Source: Cliona cf. orientalis (Eukaryota > Porifera > Demospongiae > Clionaida > Clionaidae). From it: 64,000 bases of DNA. The stretch's first letter is position 1, and every line of letters starts with the position of its first letter. Of the stretch, positions 7,701 to 59,499 are shown piece after piece. The stretch spans positions 9,068,899 through 9,132,898 of the forward strand of contig OZ005694.1 in NCBI GenBank assembly GCA_963930775.1, written 5' to 3'. The translations under genes and the position numbers were made by a program. A model generated the notes under the pieces. That model was not told the DNA's origin. It made no database searches and saw nothing but the letters and a program-made list of their open reading frames with translations.

Positions 7701-10700
7701 TTTTGTAGACGCAGAGTATCTGAACTCCCACAAGGTTCCCTCAACAATGGCAATGATATTGAAGGAATGGATAAGCTGGTTGTTACGTTAGACCTGAACG
7801 ATCCATCACTAAGACACGTACTTAATTTAAAGGAAATCATAGCTAATATTCTCGGACAACCAGCTTCTAAACTAGTACTCTATGATATAGGAAGTGGGAG
7901 TGTTATACTTACATTTTGGATAGCCACTTCACTAGGGAAGGAACTATTTTTGAAAAAGCCTGATATCTTCACACAAGAACAAAGAGATAAGTTGAAGGAT
8001 GTTCGCGTGATATCACTGAAATTCAAGGAAGTATTTGTGTACAAAGTTCACCAGAAAGCAAATGAAGGTATAATAGAATTAATTAATGTGCATGATATTT
8101 GTGACCGTCCACGAGTAAGTGGTCTACCATGTGGTGTCTGAGCATGCGCATTGAGTCGTTGCTATGCAAGATCATGCACAAATAAATTTAACCTTCCAGT
8201 TTCTTATGTATTTGGAGCTCACCCTGAATTAATTCATGCTAATATTAGCATCATGGCCCAGACCCCCTCCCCTAGCCCTCGTGATGATGTTAACGTCATT
8301 GCTAATGGCTCTAGATCTATTAATTTTTAGGATGATGTCATATGCATGTGGTGAGCCTTCGCTCACGGCATAGATAGTAGAGGGGGTTACCCCCCTATTC
8401 ATGGCCTGGTATCCACTGTATGCACATGCTCTGTTATTATTCAGATTTGGAATAATCCAATTATGTACAGATACTGCCTAGTATACTTGCCTTTGACCTT
8501 AACTCATCATATCATGCTCAACGTACCTAGAAATGGCAGGCTTAGACAGTTTGAGTTTCGAGCGAGATTTCGACGTAGCCCGAGCGACGTTGTCCATCGA
8601 TTGATGAAGGCCTCTGAACAGCGTGGGGACGAATTTAGCACGATTGGTAATACAAAGGTCAGGAGATCATCCTGTATTCTTTGACATATGGACCATTTCA
8701 CTTGTCAGTACATGGTAGGAATTAGTGTACGGACACTTTGCAATGAATTATATAATATTATAATGGAAGTGTAGTGCATGCACATGCAGTGGATACCATC
8801 GACCCATGTGCTCTCTGCTAATGTGCACAATATGTAGGGAGCAGCCGAGGCACGAGACTTTTAGAAAGCTTTACCAGCTTGTTGAGAGAAGAGAGGCAGT
8901 AAAACTATACCTAGCTCACAAACGAGCTCGGTTTTTTGCTGTCGAGTCTCGAATACTTGCGTGTGCCCTCGCGAGCGCGTGCACTCGAAACGCGGGTACT
9001 GGGGTACACGCGGTAGCCGGAAATTGACTCGCGAGCACGCGCTTCATACACGCGTGTCACTCGCACTTGTTTGTCAAGTTGCCTGTGAGCTGTACTGTAT
9101 ATAAATACAGTCCAGATCACAACCAACTTGACAAATTCGCACATGTGGAGCACGAGTAACGCACAGGTATCCGTAATGCACTCGAGCTCGCAAGGCCTCA
9201 CAGCTTGTATATGGCATGCAGTTGCCTCGTACCTGGTGCGTGTATGAGCTAATAAATGTCCTTACGGGCCATTTCAATATATTGCGATACATTTAACTTA
9301 AGAGAAATTTAATATCCCCCCCCCCCCAAATTTAATCATAACCCCCTAACCTTCATCCATATGTACATTGAAGGTGCTTATATCCCGTTACTATGTTGTT
9401 GCTAAGTAAAATATATGCCATATTGCACTAACCGCAAACTCATATTGCACTAACCGCAACGATATTGCACTAACCGCAAAGTCATATTGCACTGTCAAAT
9501 GCGCTTCAGGCAAAAGTATTGCCGAGGATCAAAGAACAGCCGCTTCTTCAGCGATTCTGTGGGACTCTGTAAAGCTGTATTAATGGAGCGTGTAGCGGGA
9601 AGAATGGCAGGAAAAAGCACAAAGCGGTTCGAAGCGATCATGGGCGGAGTCGTATCGTCAATCGGTTGCGAGTCTACACAGACTGAGAGAGCTACATACA
9701 TACCAAGGTAAGCTTACCGCGTAGAAGCTTTGGCATGGCAATAGGTATCCTTGCTTCTGCGCTAGGCAACAGCTTGAGCGACGAATATCAGATTCTGAAC
9801 TCGATGGTGGATCGAGTTTAGTGTCGATTTGACCACACCCCTCAGCCACGGGGCGCTCTAAAGAACGATCGACGTTCGAGAGCTGACTCATAGAGCGGCT
9901 TAGTAGACTGATACGACCAAGATGAGTTGTTCTTTCTTCTTCTTTTCAGTATCCATGGTAGCTAATGCCCACGGGATATAAAATAGTTATATCACGTGCA
10001 CTCGGGATGTATGGCATTTATTGCACTCAGCCCTCGGGCCGCTTTGCGCCCTCGTGCTTCGGTGCAATAAATGCCATACATCCCTCGCGCCCGTGATATA
10101 ACTATTACATAAGTAATAGTTTGCTAGCTTGTATGGTACTATCGGGATAATAATTTAATTAATTTGTAATAGCTGTCCGTGAAAAACGTCCATTGGAGAA
10201 ATCAGCTGAGGAACCACCAGAGAAGCATCCTCGCCTTGAAGGAGGACCTAGTGAAGCAGATGGTGATTCTCGCTCAGCCAATGTAGCTCATAGGGTGTAT
10301 ATGTATCCGTTGTTGAAACACCGGCCAAAATTGGCTGCATTCTATTTGCGCCAACCCGAGGTTCCTGATGGCACATGGCCGCCAGTCAAAAAGACACAGT
10401 ATATAAACTTAGCACTCATTAGAACAGAACAAGCAATTGACTTTAGCAAGGAATTCTTGCGTCAGACGATTCGTGGTTCTATTGATGACATCATGAAGGA
10501 TAAGGATGACATTAATTATGACGAGGTGTTTACAGAGTTGGAGGAGGGTACTACGCTACTCTTCGAAGGAAGGCCCGGGTGCGGCAAGACAACCATGATG
10601 AACAAAGTATCACAAGACTGGGCTAAATGGAAGTTCTTTTCTTCATGTCTACTATTCTTGGTTCACCTACGGAGGTTTGGAAATCGATCTGATATTAATC

Positions 10701-13700
10701 TTGAAACAGTTCTTCGCTCTACTCCTGTTGATTTTTCTAAAGAAGAATTCCAACAGATTCAGACACACATTGAAGATAATCAAGGAGAAGGTGTTGTATT
10801 TGCACTGGATGGGCTGGATGAATATTGCCCAGATAAGAAGGAAATGAAGACAACCTTTGTACATAAACTAATTAAAGGACAAATCCTTCCAAAATCTGTG
10901 GTGATTGTGGCATCACGTCCAGCTGCTTCTCAGAAATATCGAAGAGATTCTACCAAATGTATTGAGGTGCTTGGGTTTTTAAAAGAGCAAATATATGAGT
11001 ATATAGATAGTTACTTTAAGAACAAACGCTCATTAGTGGTAGGACTTAGAACATACCTGGAGCATCATCCCAATGTCATGCACATGTGCTACCTTCCCCT
11101 ACACATGGCAATGGTCACATATCTTTACGAAGTTGAAGGAGCTTCTCTTCCTCAAACTGAGACCGAGATATATCGCCACTTCACACTTTACACTTTACTA
11201 CGATCTATTCGTAAGAGAAATGACACAGAGATGGAAGTTGATGATGAAGAATTTCACTTATCGTCTTTTGATGAGCTGCAGCAAGAAGACAGAAACATAT
11301 TTGATTGTATTCTTAAATTTGCTTACGAAACCACTGTAGTCAATCCACATCAGGTATTCTCAGCTGAAGAAGTGAAAAAATTCAATGACAATTTGCTCGG
11401 TTTAGTAGTTTTCGACAAACAATTTGCAAGATATGGACTCAAGGAGATCTACACCTTTCTACATCTTACCTTTCAAGAATTCCTTTCTGCTTGTCATATT
11501 GTACAACTTGATCCTCAAGCCCAGGAGGAAATCATTTTAAAGTATGGCAGTGATAAAAGCTTAGGAGTCGTTTGGAAATTTTACTGTGGAATGACACAGT
11601 TTTCCGGTGAAAAAATGTGCAATTTCAAACAGTTGGTTGAAAAAACAAAATCTGAGGTACTTCTTCATCTTCGCTGTGCTCACGAATCACAACAAGATAT
11701 CTTATGTACACACACAGTAAACTCATATGACTCAAAGATTGTTTTGAATTCGTCGTCGCTCAATCCTGCCGACTTCACTGCTCTGGGTTATGTGCTCACT
11801 CATTCTACTGTGCCTGCTACTGAGCTTACCATCACTTCGTGTAATATCGGTCCTGAAGGTCTCTCTGCACTGGAGAAGGCAGCTAATCCCTCCCTTGCTA
11901 TGAAAACATTAAGGTGATTTTGGATTAGTTCTAATACTTTGCTCTTGATATACCGTATAGCCGGAAATATTGGCGGGAATTAAATTTGGTGGTTGAGCCC
12001 AAAATCGCTATTACAAGAATATTGGCAGATTCAAATTTGGCGGTTCGGTACTGGATCGCCACACATATGTATGCGAGTAGGAAAATTTTGGCGAATTTTA
12101 ATTTGGCAGTTGTAATATAGACCGCCAAACCGCCAAATTTATTTCCCCGCCAAATTTTCTGGCTATATGGTATTAATATGCATATTAAATTCTCCAGTTT
12201 TCATGGGACAAAGGTTAAAAAAATGATTCCCGAATTGTGTAGTGTTGTGAAGAAATTCCCGCAGTTGAGTAATATGAAGTAAGTAGCTAATTCACTGAGT
12301 AAATATACCTCACTTAGTTGCACTACATCATATATCTGTGTGCTGTACTCAGTTTCTCAAGCTGTGGCATCATAAACAAATCATTGAGTGAAATGGCTGA
12401 AATATTGCCAGAGTTGGCGTCGGTAGAGAAACTGGAGTAAGTTGCCATTAATTAAAATTTATGTAAGTAGCTACTATCCTTGCTTCTAAGCCAATTATTT
12501 CGGAGCCTGTGTCATAAATTTTATTTGGAAATTTGGATTTAATTTTGATGGGCCCTCCGTTATGAGAGTCGATTTTTATGCTGCTCTAACGACGTGAAAA
12601 TATTATTGTCTAATTTACTTGCATGCACATACTCTAGCTTGTCCTGTAATGATTTGGGCACAAAGTCTGTGAAGGTTCTCTGTAGTTTACTCACAAAACT
12701 ACCAAAGCTGAAGAATCTTGTGTGGTGAGGCAGTAGTACCCATCTGATTCAGCTTTCTTTTAGTGGTGCAGTATGTTCTCATTTTTGTGCAGGATGGACG
12801 GTCTGCTTACTTGGCCTTTATTGGATACCTTAATTAAAAGAGATGTTGAAATTAATTTGTAAGTATAAATATCAGATTAATACTAGGATCCTTTTTATGA
12901 CAATGTGTTTTGTTGCTAATAGTGTTAGCAAAAGCTCCAAGAGCCCCTTGCAAAGGTATATTTGAAAGGTTCTACCATAAATCATGAATATTTTGTGTCT
13001 AATATATTTTATGCAATAATTTTTCGTGTTAAATAATTTTTGGACAAACGACCCTGTACTGCATTTATCATTAATATTGTATATGTATGTATTTTCATGC
13101 ATTTAATTTTTCACATAAGCCAGGCTGTCCAAAAATATTTTAACAACGAAATATTCGCGATTTATGGTATATTATTATGCTACTTTTTGTGTGATTTTTT
13201 TCAAGCCTTGGTGATTTTGATGTCAATTCCGTTTCAAGATACTTTCAAGCTCACCCTTGTAAAGCAGTATGTTTTGAAGAGTTTAAGTAAGTTGACAATG
13301 TACTTTGAATCTAAGCACCGTAGACTCCCGCGATTACGCCCCCCTCGCGCATAAGCCCCCCCTGCATTTTTAACTCAAGTTCCTGCATAGGTAGTTTTGT
13401 CTCGCGTATAAGCCCCCCTCTCCCTGACTGTAAAATGGAGTCCATAAGTCAATAAAAACAGTAGCTACAGCTAGCAAACTAGCTATTTGTGTCATATTAT
13501 GCCTTACTTTGTCGTTTTTTCTCGAGTTTCGCCCACCAAACAGACAGAGAAAGTACAGAGATTGCGCGCCCACGTGGCATTCGACGGTCGGTAATGGTCG
13601 TCAAACGGAAATGTTAGGATCCAGAGGAGATTCGACGGGGTCAAAAGGTCACAATTAGCTAATCACGTGCTCCCATATGTTTGTATGGGAGTATTAATTT

Positions 13701-28473: not shown

Positions 28474-31400
28474 GTATGTATAATGTCACAACAATGTAAT
28501 TATGCACTACAGTAATGACATTATGCATGGGCTGACTATAAATTAAATTATTTGGATCAGCATGACTGTATTCAATAATTATTAGAAATGGATAAATGTC
28601 ATGATGTTTTAATATATGAACGCATTCAAGTCGGTATCTCAACTCAGATAGTCAGGGTTGCTCCTCAATGTTGTTAAGCTTGAAACTCCCATATTGCCAC
28701 TAAAATGTATGCGCATGCGCAGACAAACTGATCTGTAGGCCACACCCCTCACTGCAGGTGGAATTTAATGAGCCAAGAGACTTAGCTCCACTCCAGCATG
28801 GATACTATAGTACCGGTATGACAGCGAACAGTTAACTCGCCTCTTCAGTCTTGCTTTGCAAGAAGCATAGATATGCGAGAAGTCGGAGACTTTGGTGGGC
28901 CCAACTTGCGAGTACAACGATGACGTTCTCACTCCGCTCAAACCGGCATCGATGCTGGCGCGGGCGCAAAATCGAGATATTAGGGCTAGGCTATAGCTAG
29001 CTAGCTGTACTGCAGCCTAGGCCGAGGGCCGGACGGCCCCAAGGCTGTACTCGTATGTACTCGTACTCGTACTCAAGTACTCGAACTCGCGATCGATGGC
29101 CGGCCGGCCGGCCGCGCCGAGCGCGCGGCGCTTTGCGCCTCGTACGTGCACATGCATCTCCATGGTTACCATGTTTTTTGCACACGGCCCTACCGTTCTG
29201 ACCAATCAGGTGCGTTATGACACAAAACGACACTTTCTGAAAATATTTTTCGTTGTATATAGTATAACTAAAGAAGCTACCTGGACTAGCAAACCTTGGA
29301 GCCACACTCCAGGGGACTTATGGTATTAAATTTAATAATATTTTAAGCAATTGCATGATCCCTATGAGGCTATGTATGTAGCGTAAGGTATATCCAGGTT
29401 ATTAGGCCACTGTTAGTAGTAAACGTGCTTCTGGTCCACAAATTCCCCTCCTGTTCAATTTCCTCATTTAATAATTAAATTTATAACTGACCACAAACAT
29501 TAACACTCTACAAAATGAGATCGTACTGAAAGACGGCAGGGTTTATAGACTTCAGCTGCGTATCGTACATCTCTTGAAACGTCAGAGTAGGAGGGTATAG
29601 TGGAGAAATCTGCCATGGCAGCAAGGTACGCTTCGTTTTTAAGCTAAAAACGCTCAGATTCACAATGCTCATGACGACTAGTGCCACCAACACGAAAAAG
29701 ACGAACTTTCTGCCAGCCATGTGCAAACGCTTTCTAGCAATGTGGGTGGGGCTACATGCAATAATGGCATACGTCATCAATAATGGCGAAATTCACACGG
29801 GGCCAAATATTGACATGGGCGGGTGAGCAGAAACTAGTTTACTACGAACAGTGGCATTATTTGTAGTAACCAGCGTTTCTATTTCAGATGATAAACTGGC
29901 ATCCAGAATGGCTGGTGCCGGTGCATCTTATTGATGATGCCGGTTCCACCAACCACTTCGCAACGGAGTCTAACTCTTGTGTACGCCAGGATAAGGCTAT
30001 TGCACCACAGCAAGAAGATAGTGGGAGGTCTGGAGGATCCAGAGATAGTGCAGGTAGCAATCATGCTAGATCTATTATTAAATTTGGCGTGTGCTCTTAT
30101 GAAATGCATACCAAATTCTGATAAAATTACAACAATCACGAATCTGATTGATTCACCTAATATTATGTTAGCTAGCTAGTGACTGTTGGTTCCCCTGGTT
30201 GAAGGATTGCATGCACAGGAAATCATTTAATACCACATTATGTGTAGAGTATAACACACTTCCTGTGGTTTTCTCACCACAAACCATTTAACTGATTACA
30301 GGCCAGGAGGGCTTGTTACGATGCAAATGCGATCCCGACCCGTTCGCGATACGCCGGTATACGTATGCCGCCGCGATCGCTGGACGATATGGATGGGAGG
30401 GGCTGGGAGGTCAGGGGATAGGTTGCGAATGGTTAGCAGGGTTAGTGTGGGAGGGGCTGGGAGGTCTGGGGATGGGTTGCGAATGGTTAGCAGGGTTAGT
30501 CTCTAGGGTTTGCGTATACGTGGACTGGAGGGGCTGGGAGGTCTGGGGATGGGTTGCGAATGGTTAGCAGGGTTAGTCTCTAGGGTTTGCGTATACGTGG
30601 ACTGGAGGGGCTGGGAGGTCTGGGGCTGGGTTGTGAATGGTTAGCAGGGTTAGTGTGGGAGGGGCTGGGTTGTGTAAGGTTTGTCTATAAAATAGTTGCT
30701 GTCGGCAGCAACAACGGTGGTGGCTGACTGGTTGGGCTCTTATGTATGGGACGGAATAGAGCGGGTTCGAATCTTGCCGTACACTTTGACTTTTTTTCTT
30801 TTTTTTCCCTGTCGAATTTTTCTAAGTGTTGATAGATCGCATTTGCGTTAGATCGCATTTGCGTCGTAACAGGGCTGCAGGTGTAGTCGGCTGATAAGCT
30901 ACATGTGTGTTGCAGTACAGTAACTGTTGTAGACCTCACCACTCATGGTTAATTTGTAGTGACCTGTTCTATAGATTGTTGTCAATCATTGCACTGTCAC
31001 CTGATCATGAATATAATTTGTAAAATCTGGCTGATAAGCACAATGCACTTATAGTGGTAAATGTAGGTGTAATGGTTATTTGCACCTATAATAAAGGATA
31101 GTACAGCAACCACCCCCGCGAGGTTTGGGTTTGGTTCTTGTGAAACAATAGCTAATAACGAGAAGATGTGCGCTTAATATGTATTATATATTGGGTTTAC
31201 TTATTAATAACTATATTATTGTATTGTATGCATGTATCTCTATTACAGTGCTTGATGAGATGCCTCTGCTGCATGAGTTGCAACGTCTTTGTAGAGACGA
31301 TGTTGTAGTTAATGTAATCAAAGCAGTAGCACCATTCTGGAAAAAGTTTGCACTATATTTAACGATGGACGGAAACATGGTCGAGATATGGGAAACAAAT

Positions 31401-34400
31401 CATGTATGTCAAGTTGAAGATGCTGCCATGAAACTATTTCGTCATTGGTTAAATGGCAATGGACGTCAACCCATTTCTTGGAAGACGCTGATCCAGGCTT
31501 TGCGTGAAAATGACCTTCCCATGATTGCAATAGAGGTGGAAGAAATTCTGACTGGCCATTCAGGTGAAATAAATCAGCTACGTATACAGATAAAGCAAAC
31601 ACCCACACGATTCACAGTACTTATAATGTACTCTGTCAGTGTTATTCCTGCATATGCATAAATGATATGAGTGTGTGCATACAATTGCCTCATACCCAAT
31701 CCGTGCATGTGCTAATAGTACTCCTTATAGGCCACTTAAATAATATGATAGACTCCCTCCCATGAAGAACCCCAACTTTGTAGACCATCCGTATGAAGGT
31801 GCATGAATAAGAGCTAGCTAGCTTGTATGACAAAAAAGATGCTGTTGCGATAATAATTTTATATACATAGTTATTCATGCAAAACGTCCATTGGAAAAAT
31901 CAGTTGAAGAGGAAGCATCAGAGAAGCGTCCTTGTCTTGAAGGAGGACCTAATGAAGCGGATGGTGATTCTCACTCAGCCAATGTAGCTATAGATAGTAA
32001 TCCACTATTGAAACACCGGCCAAAATTGTCTGCATTCTATTTGCGCCAACCTGAGGTTCCTGAGGGCACATGGCCGCCAGTCAAGAAGACACAGTATATA
32101 AACTTAGCACTCATTAGAACAGAACAGGCAATTGACTTTAACAAGGAATTCTTGCGTCAGACGATTCGTGGTTCTATCGATGACATCATGAAGGACAAGG
32201 ACGACATTAATTATGACAAGGTGTTTACGGAGCTGGAGGAGGGTACTACGCTACTCTTCGAAGGAAGGCCCGGGTGCGGCAAGACAACCATGATGAACAA
32301 AGTATCACAAGACTGGGCTAAATGGAATATCTTTTCTTTATGTCTACTCTTCTTGGTTCACCTACGAAGGTTTGGAAATCGATCAGATATTGATCTTGAA
32401 ACAGTTCTTCGTTCTACACCTGTTGATTTTTCTGAAGAAGATCTCCAACAGATTCAAACACACATTGAAGATAATCAAGGAGAAGGTGTTGTATTTGCAC
32501 TGGATGGGTTGGACGAATATTGCCCAGATAAGAAAGATATGAAGACAACCTTTGTACATAAACTAATTAAAGGACAAATCCTTCCAAAATCTATAGTGAT
32601 TGTGGCATCACGTCCAGCTGCTTCTCAAAAATATCGAAGAAGTGCTACCAAATGTATCGAGGTGCTTGGGTTTTTAAAGGAGCAAATATACGAGTATATC
32701 AACAGTTATTTTGATAGGAATAAAAACAAGGATTTGTTAGTGGTAGGACTTCGGACATACCTGGAGCATCATCCCAATGTCATGCACATGTGCTACCTTC
32801 CCCTACACATGGCAATGGTCACGTATCTTTATGAAGTTGAAGGAGCTTCTCTTCCTCAAACTGAGACTGAAATCTATCGCCACTTCACACTTTCCACTTT
32901 ACTACGATCTATTCGTAAGAGAAATGACACAGAGATGGAAATTGACGATGAAGAATTTTGCTTCTCATCCTTTGATGACTTGAAGCCAGGGGATAGAGGC
33001 ATGTTTGACTCGATTCTTAAATTTGCTTACGAAGCCACTGTAGTCAATCCACAGCAAGTTTTCTCAGCTGAAGAAGTCAGAAAATTCACCAATAGGCAGT
33101 TTAATAACACTGGAAACAATGAAAATTCACTTGGTTTAGTAGTCGTCGATAAGTATTTTGTCAGGTATGGACTCAAGGAGATCTACACCTTTCTACATCT
33201 TACCTTTCAGGAATTCCTTTCTGCTTGTCATATTGTACAACTTAATTATCAAGCCCAGGAGGAGGTTATTTTGAAGTATGGTGGTAATAAAAGCTTAGGT
33301 GTTGTTTGGAAATTTTACTGTGGAATGACACCGTTTTACGGTGAAAAAATGCTCAACTTCAAACAGTTGGTTGAAAAGACAAAATCTGAGGTACTTCTTC
33401 ATCTTCGCTGTGCTCACGAATCACAACAAAATCTCTTATGTACTCATATAATAAACTCATATGGCTCAAAGATTGTTTTGAATTCATCGTCGCTCAACCC
33501 TGCCGACTTCACTGCTCTGGGTTATGTACTCACTCATACTGATGTGCCTGCTACTGAAATTGCCATCACTTCATGTAACGTTGGTCCCGAAGGTTTATCT
33601 GCATTGGAGAAGGCAGTTAATCCCTCCCTTGCTCTGAAAACATTAAGGTGATTCTAGATTAGTTATAATACTTTGCTATTGATATTGGCATATTAAATTC
33701 TCCAGTTTTCGTGGGACAAAGGTTAAAAAAATAATTCCCGAATTGTGTAGTGTTGTGAAGAAATTCCCGCAGTTAAGTAATATAAAGTAAGTAGCTAATT
33801 CGTCGAGTAAATGTCCCTCACTCAGTTGCACTATATCATACATCTGTATTGTACTCAGTCTCTCAAGCTGTGGCATCATACTGAAATCACTGAGTGAAAT
33901 GGCTGAAATATTGCCAGCATTGGAGTCGGTAGAGCAACTGGAGTAAGTTTCCATTAATTAAAGTTTATGTAAATAGCTACTATAGCCTTGCTTCTAAATC
34001 AATCATTTCGGAGCCTGTGTCATAAATTTTATTTGGAACTGAATTTGGATTTATTTTCGATGTGCCCTTTGTTATGAAAGTCAACTTTTATGCTGCTCTG
34101 AAAATATTGTAAGTTGTCTAATTTTACTTGCATGCACATACTAGCTTGTCCTGTAATGAGTTGGGCGCAATGTCTGTGAAGGTTCTCTGTAACTTGCTCA
34201 CGAAACTACCAAAGTTGAAGAATCTCGTGTGGTGAGGCAGTAGTACCCGTCTGATTCAGCTTTCTTTTAGTGGTGCAGCGTGTTCTCATTTTTGTGCAGG
34301 ATGGACGGCCTGCTTACTTTGTCTTTATTGGATACCTTAATTAAAAGAGATGTTGAAATTAATTTGTAAGTATAAATATCAGATCAATACAGTAACTAGG

Positions 34401-37400: not shown

Positions 37401-40133
37401 ACACAGCCTCTATGGAAACAACATTGGTGGTTCTGGTGCTCAAGCTCTGGCGGAACGTCTCCCACATTGTACTAACCCACAAAACTTAGAGTAAGTTCAA
37501 GGGCTATATATTATGGAAGCCGAGAAGTGCAATTTCCCGCACGACGCCCATTTCCGCATGCGGAGGGCCAGCTCCGCATGCGGATGTACGTTCTCCGCGT
37601 GCGGAGAGCCAGCTCCGCATGCGGGCAAACGTTCTTCGCATGCGGAGAGCCAGCTCCGCACGCGGGTAAACGTTCTCCGCGTGCGGAAATGCACCCACGC
37701 ACGCGGGCAAACGTTTTCCGCGTGCGGAGATGCACTTCTCGGCGTGCGGAGACCCTGCTCCGCATGCGGAGGTGCACTTTTCGGCGTGCGGAGACCCTGC
37801 TCCGCATGCGGAGATACACTTCTCGGCGTGCGGAGACGGCGTACCTCCGCATGCGGAGACCCTGCTCCGCATGCGGAAGTGCACTTCTCGGCGTGCGGAG
37901 ACCCTGCTCCGCATGCGGAAGTGCACTTCTCGGCGTGCGGAGCCCCTGCTCCGCATGCGGAGATGCACTTCTCGGCGTGCGGAGACCCTGCTCCGCATGC
38001 GGAAGTGCACTTCTCGGCGTGCGGAGACCCTGCTCCGCATGCGGAGATGCACTTCTCGGCGTGCGGAGACGTACCTCCGCATGCGGAGACCCTGCTCCGC
38101 ATGCGGAAGTGCACTTCTCGGCGTGCGGAGACCCTGCTCCGCATGCGGAGATGCACTTCTCGGCGTGCGGAGACGTACCTCCGCATGCGGAGCAGAGTCT
38201 CCGCACGCCGAGAAGGTATCTCCGCATGCGGAGCAGGGTCTCCGCACGCGGAGAAGACACCCCCGCATGCGGAGCAGGGTCTCCGCACACGGAGAACGTT
38301 TGCCCGCATGCGGAGCTGGCTCTCCGCACGCGGAGAACGTACGTCCGCATGCGGAGCTGGCCCTCCGCATGCGGAAATGGGCGTCGGGCGGGAAATTGCA
38401 CTTCTCGGCTTCCATAATATATAGCCACTGATTCTACATGTACCTGACCTGGGCCTGCATGTGATTAGCATGTATGTACAAAGGATGAAGTAGTTGATGT
38501 TTATGATCCGTACAGTCACCAGCTAGATTAGGTACCTGAGCGATGCAAGAAGTGATTTATTGATTGATGGTGAAGCCTGAGGCAATAGGCCACTAAACTG
38601 TCCAGTTCAAGTACTGTAGCCAATTTAATACTGAACAAAGGAAAATTATCAGGTGCAAATCACAGCTACCCCATGTCAATGTCAGGATCATAAATTATGA
38701 TAATATTTGTTGTTTACATTCAAGTCTCAGGGAGAAGTATATTGGTGATGCTGGTGCTCAGACTTTGGCAACCAATCTCCAGTATTACACTGACATTCAG
38801 AAATTAGAGTAAGCAACTACATGTGATGACATAATAATAAGTCATTAATTTTGTTCTATCCTAGTTACAATATTTAAATGTACATAGGATTGTTATTTTA
38901 ACAGTATGTATACATGGATTAAAGCGGGCAATTGTTCATTCACTTGAACTCTGTACTCAGATAGAAATGTTGCTAGTGTGTGGGGAACTACCCTAAAAAA
39001 TAACCCGGACTTCCCCATATTATGTATCAACAGTTACTATATCTTATTCATACAGTCTCTATGGGAATGGCATTGGTGTTGCTGGTGCTCAGGCTCTGGC
39101 AGGAGGACTCCAGCATTGTACTAGCCTTCAAGAGCTAAAGTGAGTTATCTGTGTTAACAGTGCATGCCCATGGTTGTGATATGATTATTACGAATCATGA
39201 TGTTGCTCACATGTATAGTCTCGAGAGGAACAATATCAATGGTGCTGGTGCTCAAGCTCTGGCAGAAGGTCTTCAGCATTGCACTAACCTTCAAAAATTA
39301 AAGTAAATAATCTTTATGTTGACTCATCACATTTATTTTGTGTGTCGATCTGTCTACTATTATAGTACTGTTACAGTACTCTTGTGCATGTATGTGGGAA
39401 AGCAATGCACTAACCTTCAAGAGTTAGAGGAAGAAGCCTATATCAATACTAGGGGACTGTACGGCATTGTGGGGCGAGCCTGAGTGACAGTAAGTGTGCG
39501 ACAGTTATTTATGTTGCGCCATGCCCAACTAACTATAGGCTGCAGGATGCACACTCGTAGGCTGACCTCTCTCTCTCTTCTGCCGACTCTGTATCAAATC
39601 TCTCACGTTGATACGCGCTCATTTCCAGTAGTCTAGACTCCCTCTCTCTTGTACTGACTCAGCAATGCTGGTGCTAAAAGAGGTCCTCTATATAACCCAT
39701 GATTATTTGTTTGTATATAGTCTCCAGGGAAATAGCATTGGTATTCCTGGTGCTCAAGCTCTGGCAGAAGGTCTCCAGCATTGTATTAACCTTCAAGAAC
39801 TAAAGTGAGTGATCTACATTATTATGTGTTCACATAAGTGCATGCACATGGTTGTAATTATTGCATTTAACCTCTGGAATACAAATCGTAATATTCCTCA
39901 CATATACAGTCTCTATGAGAACAGAATCGAGGGTGCTGGTGCTCAAGCTCTGGCAGAAGGTCTCCAGCATTGCACTAACCTTCGAAAGTTAAAGTAAGTA
40001 ATCACTCATTACATTTACTTTCTGTATTGCTCTGTCTATATACTAGTACTGTACTGTTTGTGCATGTATTATGGGAAAGCAATTCTGTTGCTGATTTACC
40101 CTCAGCGCATGTACCGGAGGGTTACGGTAGTCG

Positions 40134-57025: not shown

Positions 57026-57708
57026 CTGTAATTAGTACAATAGCGTAGTTACGATCCAAAGTATATGTACCAGCTATCGTCATTCACTGAGCACACAATC
57101 TATTGTCACTATAAAGATCAAGAAGTGAGGATAAATGTACAGTTAACAGTTATGCATCATGCATGCATGCTTCATTCCCAGTATGACGGGGCTTTGGCAC
57201 CTATGTGGCTACAGAATTGTTTGCTAGCATGGACATTGTAGCATTACAAAAATTGGATTATAATGTAGCCCTAGCACCCAGACTATAGCCTTGTTGCTGT
57301 AGAAACTTTTCTTGCGTACTGATGCCTTACCTTTGCTTGTTTTCTAGCGATCTGGATGCGCACTGCCACTGGCGTCTGAGTTAGTGTGGCCAACGTTGAC
57401 GATCTTTACCTCAATGATTATGCGCATGCGCTATGAGCCAGCAAACAGGTATCGCTTCCTCGTGTGTCTTCTGAACAGCTGTTCGGATGAGAATCAATCT
57501 CCGGAGGCCACAATCGAACTTTTCTTCGTACATGAACTGTTGTAAGTGCAAAAGAAACTGATCATTTTGATAGATTTGATTTTTTTCCTTCATATTTGTT
57601 GACTATTCCAACCATTCAATTTTTATTATGATATACTAGTATAGAAATCTTTGCAACTAAGTATAGTAATACTGGATTATATTGTCCTTATTTAATAGGC
57701 TGTCCACC
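57026..57708. promoter_or_regulatory. Divergent region between ITFG1 and NLR3
   Basis: This is 683 bp between head-to-head genes. GCGCATGCGC at 57422-57431 is an NRF1-like palindrome of the kind seen before NLR1 and NLR2. A minus-strand stretch ending at a good donor (GCAAAG/GTAAGG at 57332) could be an untranslated first exon of ITFG1, but no signal peptide is encoded. Confidence 0.35.
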
Positions 57709-59275
57709 ATGGTGGCTCTAGTTGAATTTGACGTAGCCGAGGCTCGTATCAATTGCAACATTCATTCTGACAAAATCCATCGGCAGCTGTCCAGTTCTAG
57801 ACTGGCCAACAGAAGACTCCATGCATGTCACTCAGTCATCGCAATGTCTCTGCTCCACCCTGCGCTGCTTATCCTCATACTCTTCATTGTGCTACGCCTT
57901 CGATCGATGAAAATTAAACTACCACTAAAGTATCACCACAAACGATGCCACAATTCTTTTTATGGTGCTGGTGTGGGTGGAACTACTAGGCCACGACTAA
58001 CCTTGAAGACACTAGTGGTGATGCTCAAGAAATATGAAACGTACCTCCTGGTGATACTACATGCGTATCGCTCTGTCATCACAATATCTCAACTCCACCC
58101 TGCACTGCTCATCCTAACTCTATTTATCGTGCTACACATTCAATTGATGTTTAATTTTCAAATTCACCTCAAACGATACCACCTTTTGTACAGTGCCAGT
58201 GCCAATGTGCGGTCATTCAAATTAAATAATTTTTTTCACCATAAGCGATGCCACCATTCCTACAAAACTACTAGCTATGGGTCACGACTAATCTTGAAGA
58301 CAACAGTGGTGATGCTCGGTTATGCAGAGAAAGACAAAATGTACCTCCTGGCGATCATACATCAACGTCTGATCATTTCTGGAGATGTGGAACTCAACCC
58401 TGGACCCCTGGATGGTGAGCAAATATTACACAGAGCAGGGTTCTCCCCACACTGGCCTAGTGGTGACTACATGTATAGTAATGGACTTGTAAACTGTGGT
58501 TACTATGAAATTAGTGGTTATAGGCATGCCCAAAGCATGACCATGAGGTTATGTAGCCATTTGTAGTGCACCACAGATAGGTGAATGGTGGTAAATTTGA
58601 GTAGTTTCTGGAATAGTTGAGTTAGCAACTGATCAACCCTGTGTATCTGCATACAGATTTACTCTGGGGAAAACCCTGACACAGCCTAGGAGTATGCTAT
58701 TATATAAAAATATTATTATATGAGCATAACTATATTGTAAGCGTAAAGGGGGTGGACACCTCTTAAATATTATAGTCATCATATTATTTTTTATTATGGT
58801 TATAAAATTAATAATAATATTATTATTATGAGCTGGTATGAATATTTATGATTTTTAGTGTTGGAGTTGTGGAGTGTAACTAATGAGCTTTTCTCTGTGG
58901 TAGCCAAGTGGTACTGCATTGGAGTCCAGCTGGGTGTCGATCCAGCCAAACTCGAGGAGATTGAAAACAACCATCAAACAGCTGACAGACGCTTCTCCGA
59001 AGTGATCAAGTTCTGGCTGAGGGGAAACACAAGAGTAGCTGCGAGCTGGGAGTCACTAGTAGAGGTCTTAGAACGATCTTCTGTTGGTGAGAAAGGACTG
59101 GCCAAGACATTGAGGCAGAAGGGAGGAATGGTCGTCAGCGAAACTGTGGGCATAGCACCTGGAGCTGCTGAAAGTGGAGTACAACCACAGGAGAATAATG
59201 GAAGCCAGAGAGGAAAGAAGAGGTCTGTGGAACAGAAATTGGATGATAGCGGGGATCAACATCATGAACATCAAG
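57709..59275 (+). CDS. NLR3 5' part: hydrophobic cassettes - 2A - Death domain
   Basis: Exon 1 (57709-58414) starts at an excellent Kozak (CCACCATGG) and encodes 235 codons. Hydrophobic segments LLHPALLILILFIVLRL (48-64) and QLHPALLILTLFIVLHI (128-144) precede YLLAIIHQRLIISGDVELNPGP (212-233), a 2A-like site. Exon 2 (58859-59275, phase 1-1) encodes a Death domain (LELWSVTNELFSVVAKWYCI, IGVQLGVDPAKLEEIENNH, RFSEVIKFWLRGNTR, SWESLVEVLER) and a charged linker with SQRGKKRSVEQKL. The donor AAG/GTGCAT implies more exons. No NACHT is present before 64000, so calling it an NLR rests on its Death exon sharing phase and position with NLR2 and on its neighbours. It could instead be a stand-alone Death protein. 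Confidence 0.72.
58381..58407 (+). other. 2A-like translational recoding site GDVELNPGP
   Basis: This lies in frame at residues 225-233 of NLR3. The nine residues fit the D(V/I)ExNPGP consensus, with an upstream Leu/Ile-rich stretch as in active 2As. Known 2As make the ribosome skip the Gly-Pro bond (between residues 232 and 233), releasing the upstream peptide and restarting at Pro. The splice donor lies 7 nt after the motif, so the Death-domain product would begin PLDVLELW. Confidence 0.88.
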
Positions 59276-59499
59276 GTGCATATGCTAGTAATATTATCTA
59301 CTGTACAATAATATTGATTATGTATGTGGATATTGCCATAGTAGAATGACGATACCTCGGAAATACCACTTGTTTATTGCCTTTTGCATTGTTACTTATG
59401 ACAATACTTGTAACAATACGCGGCAATGAACTCGTGATATTTCCCGGTATCATCGTTCTACTATAGCAATAAGTATAATTAGTACTACTGTATGGTAAA

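What the first reader, a model, noticed from the sequence alone, without database searches (positions are those of the whole stretch)
58381..58407. 2A recoding site upstream of a Death domain in an immune-receptor-like gene
An in-frame GDVELNPGP follows a Leu/Ile-rich stretch at the end of an exon whose next exon is a Death domain. Established: 2A motifs of this form cause ribosomal skipping, and N-terminal 2A-like signals on sea-urchin NLR-type proteins can act both as signal sequence and recoding site, giving dual targeting. Inference: NLR3 could be made as a membrane- or secretory-directed fusion when skipping fails and as a cytosolic protein starting PLDVLELW when it works.
Basis: partly seen in the sequence, partly recalled or inferred. 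Interest (0 to 1): 0.9.

Follow-up and report, generated by a model that had tools for sequence, protein, structure and literature searches.

The report
StopGo leader on sponge Death-domain genes
A sponge immune-receptor-type gene carries a conserved signal that should make the ribosome release a small membrane protein and then carry on to make the Death-domain protein, and the same arrangement recurs at many places in this genome, so a trick known mainly from viruses and sea urchins may be routine in sponge immunity.

Summary
The motif is real and not chance. GDVELNPGP is in frame at window 58381-58407. D[VIM]ExNPGP-coding DNA occurs 152 times in the 216.8 Mb genome, 0 times reversed. Chromosome lengths match Cliona cf. 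orientalis. All 54 places read have [SAC]G before the motif, which the search did not ask for; this is the published L-rich StopGo context. Death-like exons lie within 3.5 kb downstream on the same strand for 72 of 136 placed sites, 1 upstream, 0 opposite, shifted controls 0-5. These are divergent Death families: none of the 150 best Pfam Death hits is within 6 kb of a site. The window's upstream part is a 235-aa leader with two predicted membrane stretches, under purifying selection (dN/dS 0.38). Its 13 genomic copies all end in the motif, as do 72 of 76 public homologues. Best reading: a cellular StopGo site separating a membrane leader from a Death/NACHT receptor. Sea-urchin NLRs already show the principle; the phylum, scale and long leader look new within my searches. 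Skipping, splicing and dual targeting are untested, and no transcript was found.

The parts
57699..58414 (+). Leader exon: CDS from ATG 57709 (CCACCATGG) to the phase-1 donor at 58415; 235 complete codons plus one base. Exon start 57699 is a guess from an acceptor-like AG at 57697-57698
   Evidence: 13 copies in the genome counting this one, 9 of 9 gap runs multiples of 3, median dN/dS 0.38
57832..57900 (+). First hydrophobic, membrane-helix-like stretch SVIAMSLLHPALLILILFIVLRL (leader residues 42-64)
   Evidence: hydropathy maximum 2.73; low-confidence helical model
58072..58140 (+). Second hydrophobic stretch SVITISQLHPALLILTLFIVLHI (leader residues 122-144), an internal duplicate of the first
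   Evidence: 94-nt direct repeat, 78% identical, spacing 240; hydropathy 2.19
58339..58407 (+). 2A/StopGo element MYLLAIIHQRLIISGDVELNPG/P; predicted break between Gly 58402-58404 and Pro 58405-58407
   Evidence: lowest dN/dS of the leader; all invariant columns of the 68-row alignment fall here
58415..58858 (+). Predicted intron, 444 nt, GT...AG, phase 1
   Evidence: donor and acceptor phase kept in paralogues
58859..59277 (+). Death-like exon (Pfam match 58867-59076) ending in a weak phase-1 donor-like site CAAG|GTGCAT

Best explanation
The site is a working cellular 2A/StopGo element at the end of a separate leader exon. The spliced mRNA would encode one frame: membrane leader (235 aa) - 2A - Death domain - (about 14 kb downstream) NACHT. 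At NPG/P most ribosomes release the leader and continue, making a cytosolic Death/NACHT protein that begins PLDV. A minority that form the Gly-Pro bond would make a membrane-tethered fusion. Shown from sequence: motif, context, leader coding constraint, conserved junction phase, and linkage of many 2A sites to Death-like exons. Inferred: splicing, skipping, cytosolic release, membrane insertion, any regulation, and that the distant NACHT exon belongs to the same gene.
For: Motif 152 against 0 reversed. [SAC]G before the motif in 54 of 54 places read, 45 of 45 distinct sequences, though not in the search pattern; this is the L-rich (A/S/C)G class of Li et al. 2026 (PMC12846837 section 10). All 13 leader copies in the genome end in D[VI]E[LS]NPGP. 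72 of 76 public homologues keep it; the other 4 predicted proteins stop short of it. Leader median dN/dS 0.38, last 35 columns 0.19, last 30 codons 0.26 (8 sequences). Gap runs 9 of 9 multiples of 3 in ten leaders against 14 of 41 in eight introns. Phase-1 acceptors in 11 of 11 paralogous Death exons listed. Death-like match within 3.5 kb downstream for 72 of 136 sites, 1 upstream, 0 opposite, eight shifted controls 0-5. Listed NACHT within 6 kb downstream for 9 of 100 sites, 0 upstream or opposite, 0.14 expected under uniform placing. Both C6 copies have a NACHT exon 9-14 kb downstream; none of five Death-type queries hit directly before the NACHT of this gene.
Against: No public protein spans the leader-Death junction. 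Skipping could not be measured. Death is sub-threshold in the window copy, its model is poor (pLDDT 51) and the fold search weak (best death-domain hit E=2.8). The 150 best-scoring Pfam Death hits of the genome include 0 within 6 kb downstream of any of 136 sites and 1 within 15 kb, so 2A goes with particular divergent Death-like families, and the 72 of 136 rests on queries taken from 2A-linked genes. NACHT is 14 kb away with a transposase-like ORF between; six C3/C4 paralogues (L023-L028) have no NACHT hit within about 8.5 kb, so some members may be Death-only genes. The first 50 leader columns are less constrained (dN/dS 0.65). de Felipe 2010 (PMC2978324) reports that translocated upstream sequence can inhibit 2A, which could favour the fusion here.
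Confidence: 0.7

Rival explanations
1. Short signal-2A as in sea urchin: translation starts at an internal in-frame Met 24 or 15 codons before the motif, and the long upstream frame is incidental 5' sequence.
For: In-frame Met at -15 and -24 occur in 10 of 10 family members listed. Other 2A sites in this genome seem unable to have a long single-exon leader: 18 of 47 sites with a closed upstream frame have at most 60 codons from the first Met (one of the 18, L025, is a long leader broken by a stop). Described sea-urchin N-terminal NLR 2As are 26 aa.
Against: The long frame is under purifying selection, has only in-frame gaps and is conserved from its own ATG in public homologues. An in-frame TAG lies three codons before that ATG in 7 of 10 copies (L023-L028 and L063; contexts), fixing it as the start of the conserved frame.
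Confidence: 0.13
2. The motif is inactive in vivo and the product is simply a membrane-anchored Death/NACHT fusion.
For: Upstream translocated sequence can inhibit 2A (PMC2978324 abstract and passages). No activity data exist.
Against: Without skipping there is no evident reason for exact retention of the octapeptide with [SAC]G in 54 of 54 places, or for all invariant columns of the 68 aligned leaders to fall there.
Confidence: 0.12
3. The leader exon is a remnant of a mobile element; non-LTR retrotransposons also carry 2A.
For: Some 2A sites here lie in element-like sequence: L034 and L035 have a PHD-like/endonuclease-like frame after the 2A (by eye), and a tandem HTH-like unit in L032 shares its motif spelling with other C1 sites.
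Against: At this locus the leader is joined by a conserved phase-1 intron to a Death-like exon in tandem paralogues; the leader has no convincing Pfam match (1 of 68 members, E=0.0079, to an unrelated family) and is under constraint.
Confidence: 0.03
4. Chance motif.
For: None found.
Against: 0 reversed-pattern matches in 217 Mb against 152 forward.
Confidence: 0.01

Closest known systems
S. [quoted passage not shown] 2016, PMC4981915)
   Same: D(V/I)ExNPGP near the N-terminus of Death/NACHT-type receptors, after hydrophobic sequence; predicted separation of a leader from the receptor. [quoted passage not shown]
   Different: There the described leader is 26 aa and doubles as signal sequence. 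Here it is a conserved 235-aa protein (roughly 130-240 in relatives, by eye) with earlier membrane-like stretches, in its own exon, in a sponge. Activity is untested here.
Viral 2A/StopGo, L-rich (A/S/C)G class (Li et al. 2026, PMC12846837)
   Same: Core octapeptide and an L-rich stretch ending (A/S/C)G before D.
   Different: Cellular, apparently spliced gene, not a viral polyprotein. That paper calls cellular use rare and names sea urchin.
2A in non-LTR retrotransposons (cited in PMC4981915 and PMC11512398)
   Same: Same motif class; L034 and L035 in this genome look like such elements (by eye).
   Different: The window locus has a predicted intron and a Death-like exon; I saw no reverse-transcriptase-like frame beside it in the ORF lists, which were not searched for that family.

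Membership tests
2A/StopGo element | D(V/I)ExNPGP core | tested here: met
2A/StopGo element | Permissive upstream context, for the L-rich class ending (A/S/C)G | tested here: met
   RLIISG here; 54 of 54 places read; class definition
2A/StopGo element | Ribosome skips the Gly-Pro bond | not testable with these tools
   needs a translation assay
NLR with N-terminal 2A (sea-urchin type) | 2A precedes Death in one frame after splicing | tested here: inconclusive
   phase and frame fit here and in 11 of 11 paralogous acceptors listed; no transcript
NLR with N-terminal 2A (sea-urchin type) | About 26-aa N-terminal leader acting as signal sequence | tested here: not met
   235-aa conserved leader; short leaders are likely at other loci. 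Start codon use itself is untested
NLR | NACHT domain in the same gene | tested here: inconclusive
   NACHT exon C6:9142263-9144065, 72 bits, 14 kb downstream, same strand, phase-1 acceptor by eye; order repeated at C6:9294534
NLR | LRR repeats | tested here: inconclusive
   motif scan after the NACHT exon found only weak candidates; an LRR_6 search lists none here among the 150 scored of 813 candidates
Death domain | Pfam PF00531 match | tested here: inconclusive
   window copy 19.6 bits against 22.6; 28 of 55 relatives at E<=0.01; FADD the only PDB profile hit at E<=0.1, E=0.043

The most novel reading that the evidence does not exclude
In this sponge, StopGo is a routine, exon-shuffled gene part: dozens of Death-like/NACHT immune genes, in several unrelated leader families, start with a membrane leader plus 2A. 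In the window family the leader is itself a functional membrane protein made one-to-one with its receptor, so these genes act as two-protein cellular polyprotein genes, with the fusion as a membrane-bound alternative.
Probability: 0.37. Interest if true: 0.87.

Novelty: new variant of a known kind. Interest (0 to 1): 0.76.

Why it matters
StopGo in cellular genes is called rare (PMC12846837) and its documented immune use, in what I could read, is in sea-urchin NLRs. Finding it recurrently on Death-like/NACHT genes of a sponge would either push the association back towards the base of animals or show strong convergence. It gives a large natural set of 2A sites for testing how membrane targeting and skipping interact, and it warns that standard gene models will report fusions that cells may rarely make.

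Tried and rejected
Chance and mobile-element origins were considered and set aside for this locus (see rivals). A public-protein search with the spliced leader+Death query gave no hit across the junction, so no cDNA support. AlphaFold models of leader (pLDDT 57.6) and Death exon (51.2) are too weak to rest on; fold search was uninformative.

Limits of the counts. Death-like and NACHT places come from capped lists (150 of 859, 150 of 414 and 103 of 490 candidates scored). The two Death queries came from 2A-linked genes (the window and L043), so 72 of 136 shows that these families are 2A-linked, not that Death genes in general are. With the unseeded Pfam Death list (150 of 1292 candidates scored) 0 of 136 sites have a hit within 6 kb downstream and 1 within 15 kb (run when checking this report). 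Because of that result I lowered the best explanation from 0.72 to 0.70 and the novel case from 0.40 to 0.37. Of 152 sites 136 have known places: 100 listed, plus 36 GDVELNPGP-type places, a biased addition (65 of 100 against 7 of 36 with a listed Death-like match). Some of the 64 misses do have Death-like exons on reading (L049, L051, L054, L056). By my reading, 30 of 50 2A loci in that database have a hit to at least one Death query downstream on the same strand, three of them being the queries' own loci. For NACHT, at 15 kb there are 12 downstream pairs and 1 upstream. In the dN/dS set 8 of 10 leaders were used: L028 missed the start pattern and L025 has an internal stop. The homologue query included the 2A, some hits match mainly there (such as P0074-P0076), and several homologues are probably other assemblies of the same sponge, so 72 of 76 is not 76 independent lines. 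A1 used 67 of 76 homologues plus the window (left out: P0024, P0029, P0031, P0034, P0059, P0068, P0074-P0076; the first four lack the motif), so its invariance is conditional. A2 used 54 of 80 plus the window.

Literature: ten answered searches of the held library; lists were capped. No title or abstract opening listed reported 2A on sponge receptors. Two papers that I looked for by remembered identifier, one on Amphimedon NLRs and one on 2A in retrotransposons, were not held. Papers: PMC4981915 (part 1 of the abstract/introduction section, part 1 of Results, Discussion, passages); PMC12846837 (outline with abstract, section 10, passages); PMC2978324, PMC11512398, PMC5009743, PMC12909245, PMC12639293 (passages only, the first with its abstract); all others only in search listings.

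Full report
Where it is. The window is contig C6:9068899-9132898 of a 216.8 Mb, 149-contig assembly. Contig lengths seen (37.50, 14.80, 11.96, 11.51, 11.46, 11.33, 9.99, 9.97, 9.79, 9.46, 8.93 Mb) match the published chromosome table of the sponge Cliona cf. orientalis (PMC12639293, passages). That assembly is given as 217.17 Mb in 307 scaffolds, slightly more than is held here. The window is most likely its chromosome 6.

What is there. Window 58381-58407 encodes GDVELNPGP inside an open frame. The frame's likely start is ATG 57709 in the context CCACCATGG. A GT donor follows at 58415 and an AG acceptor precedes 58859, both phase 1. The next exon is Death-like: 19.6 bits in the window copy and 21.3, 20.6 and 24.3 bits in three other copies, against a cut-off of 22.6, so one of the four passes. 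Of 55 aligned relatives, 28 match Pfam Death at E<=0.01. About 14 kb further lies a NACHT exon; a sister copy at C6:9294534 repeats leader, Death and NACHT in the same order.

Is it chance? A DNA pattern for D[VIM]ExNPGP matches 152 times genome-wide, and its reversal 0 times. The pattern asked nothing of the upstream residues, yet all 54 places that I read have Gly at -1 and Ser, Ala or Cys at -2, and all 45 distinct sequences have Leu, Ile or Phe at -5. Li et al. 2026 define L-rich StopGo contexts ending (A/S/C)G before D (PMC12846837 section 10).

Is the upstream part a protein? A search with the 235-aa leader found 10 full-length places (the window's included) and 3 with the first 73-76 residues and the 2A end only; all 13 coincide with a D[VI]E[LS]NPGP site. 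Eight leaders give a pooled pN/pS of 0.43 and a median dN/dS of 0.38; by 50-codon blocks it runs 0.65, 0.34, 0.51, 0.48 and, for the last 35 columns, 0.19; the last 30 codons alone give 0.26. All 9 distinct gap runs among ten leaders are multiples of three, against 14 of 41 in eight of the following introns; mean identity is 0.906 against 0.749. Public proteins gave 76 homologues, 72 with the motif; the other four predicted proteins stop short of it. In a 68-row alignment the invariant columns are Q, L, S, G, D, E, N, P, G, P, all in the 2A stretch (nine homologues left out, four of them without the motif). The leader holds two duplicated hydrophobic stretches. One copy, C3:11851354, has an internal TGA, so not every copy is intact.

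Is it linked to Death genes? Of 136 2A sites with known places, 72 have a listed Death-like match within 3.5 kb downstream on the same strand, 1 upstream, 0 on the opposite strand; eight shifted controls give 0-5. The two queries behind these lists came from 2A-linked genes. The unseeded list of the 150 best Pfam Death hits tells the other side: 0 of 136 sites have one within 6 kb downstream, 1 within 15 kb. So the 2A belongs to particular, divergent Death-like families and not to Death genes at large. NACHT was sought without such seeding: 9 of 100 listed sites have a listed NACHT within 6 kb downstream, 0 upstream or opposite, 0.14 expected under uniform placing (genes cluster, so that figure is a rough guide).

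Exon structure. In one search a simple donor pattern was found within 60 nt after the motif at 41 of 54 places; in 39 of these 41 the first one is phase 1, and 13 places had no call. The Death acceptor is phase 1 in 11 of 11 paralogous exons listed. Leaders differ between families: of 47 sites with a closed upstream frame, 20 could encode more than 120 residues, 6 between 61 and 120, 18 at most 60, and 3 have no Met. This looks like one kind of phase-1 exon attached repeatedly to Death-like genes; that phase-1 exons favour shuffling is recalled knowledge. Not all sites are of this kind: L034 and L035 look like retrotransposons and L032 like another repeated element (by eye).

Mechanism. By the established 2A mechanism (PMC4981915, PMC12846837) ribosomes would release the leader at NPG and resume at P, giving a Death/NACHT protein beginning PLDVLELW. 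When the bond forms, a membrane-anchored fusion results. de Felipe et al. 2010 found that translocated sequence just before a 2A can inhibit it, giving fusions (PMC2978324 abstract and passages). A leader whose membrane-like stretches end about 80 and 160 residues before the motif is a natural case in which to study that interaction; whether it insulates or tunes the 2A is open.

Relation to known systems. Roulston et al. 2016 report 85 of 241 sea-urchin NLRs with 2A-like sequences in the N-terminal region, 14 of 87 later database entries with a 26-aa one at the N-terminus, and about 80% recoding for one tested. The window gene would work like these if active, but does not share the 26-aa leader; short leaders are likely elsewhere in the genome. 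A recent sponge NLR survey holds none of the words recoding, skipping or signal peptide (PMC12909245, term search). My literature searches found no report of 2A on sponge receptors, within the limits stated in Tried and rejected.

Limits. There is no transcript, no translation assay, a sub-threshold Death score in the window copy, weak structure models, a distant NACHT and unresolved LRRs. The claim that the site works is inference from conservation and context.

Noticed in passing
window 10163-11914 and 31831-33648: Two NACHT exons of neighbouring NLR-type genes (NACHT E=5.9e-23 for the first; a Death exon at 31152-31658 before the second, 24.7 bits). Only one D[VIM]ExNPGP site lies in the window, so these two appear to lack it.
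   Followed up: partly
L032, and 13 listed C1 sites between 18.0 and 35.5 Mb with the spelling GATATAGAAGT[GA]AACCCTGG: A repeated unit with DIEVNPGP followed by an HTH-like frame, in tandem in L032; a 2A-bearing mobile element by appearance. Only L032 was read.
   Followed up: no
L034, L035: 2A followed by a PHD-like and endonuclease-like frame, as in 2A-bearing non-LTR retrotransposons (judged by eye).
   Followed up: no
C6:9134313-9135541 (L009 8314-9542): Transposase-like (Tc1/mariner-type by eye) broken frame between the Death and NACHT exons.
   Followed up: no
L024 1869-2252 and 3049-3432: Two tandem Death-like exons after one 2A leader.
   Followed up: no
window 37476-38428: Repetitive stretch open in all three frames of the + strand (HACGEPAPHAGKR-like repeats).
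   Followed up: no
C10:760125 and 760495; C10:773803 and 774007: Pairs of 2A motifs 200-370 bases apart on the same strand.
   Followed up: no
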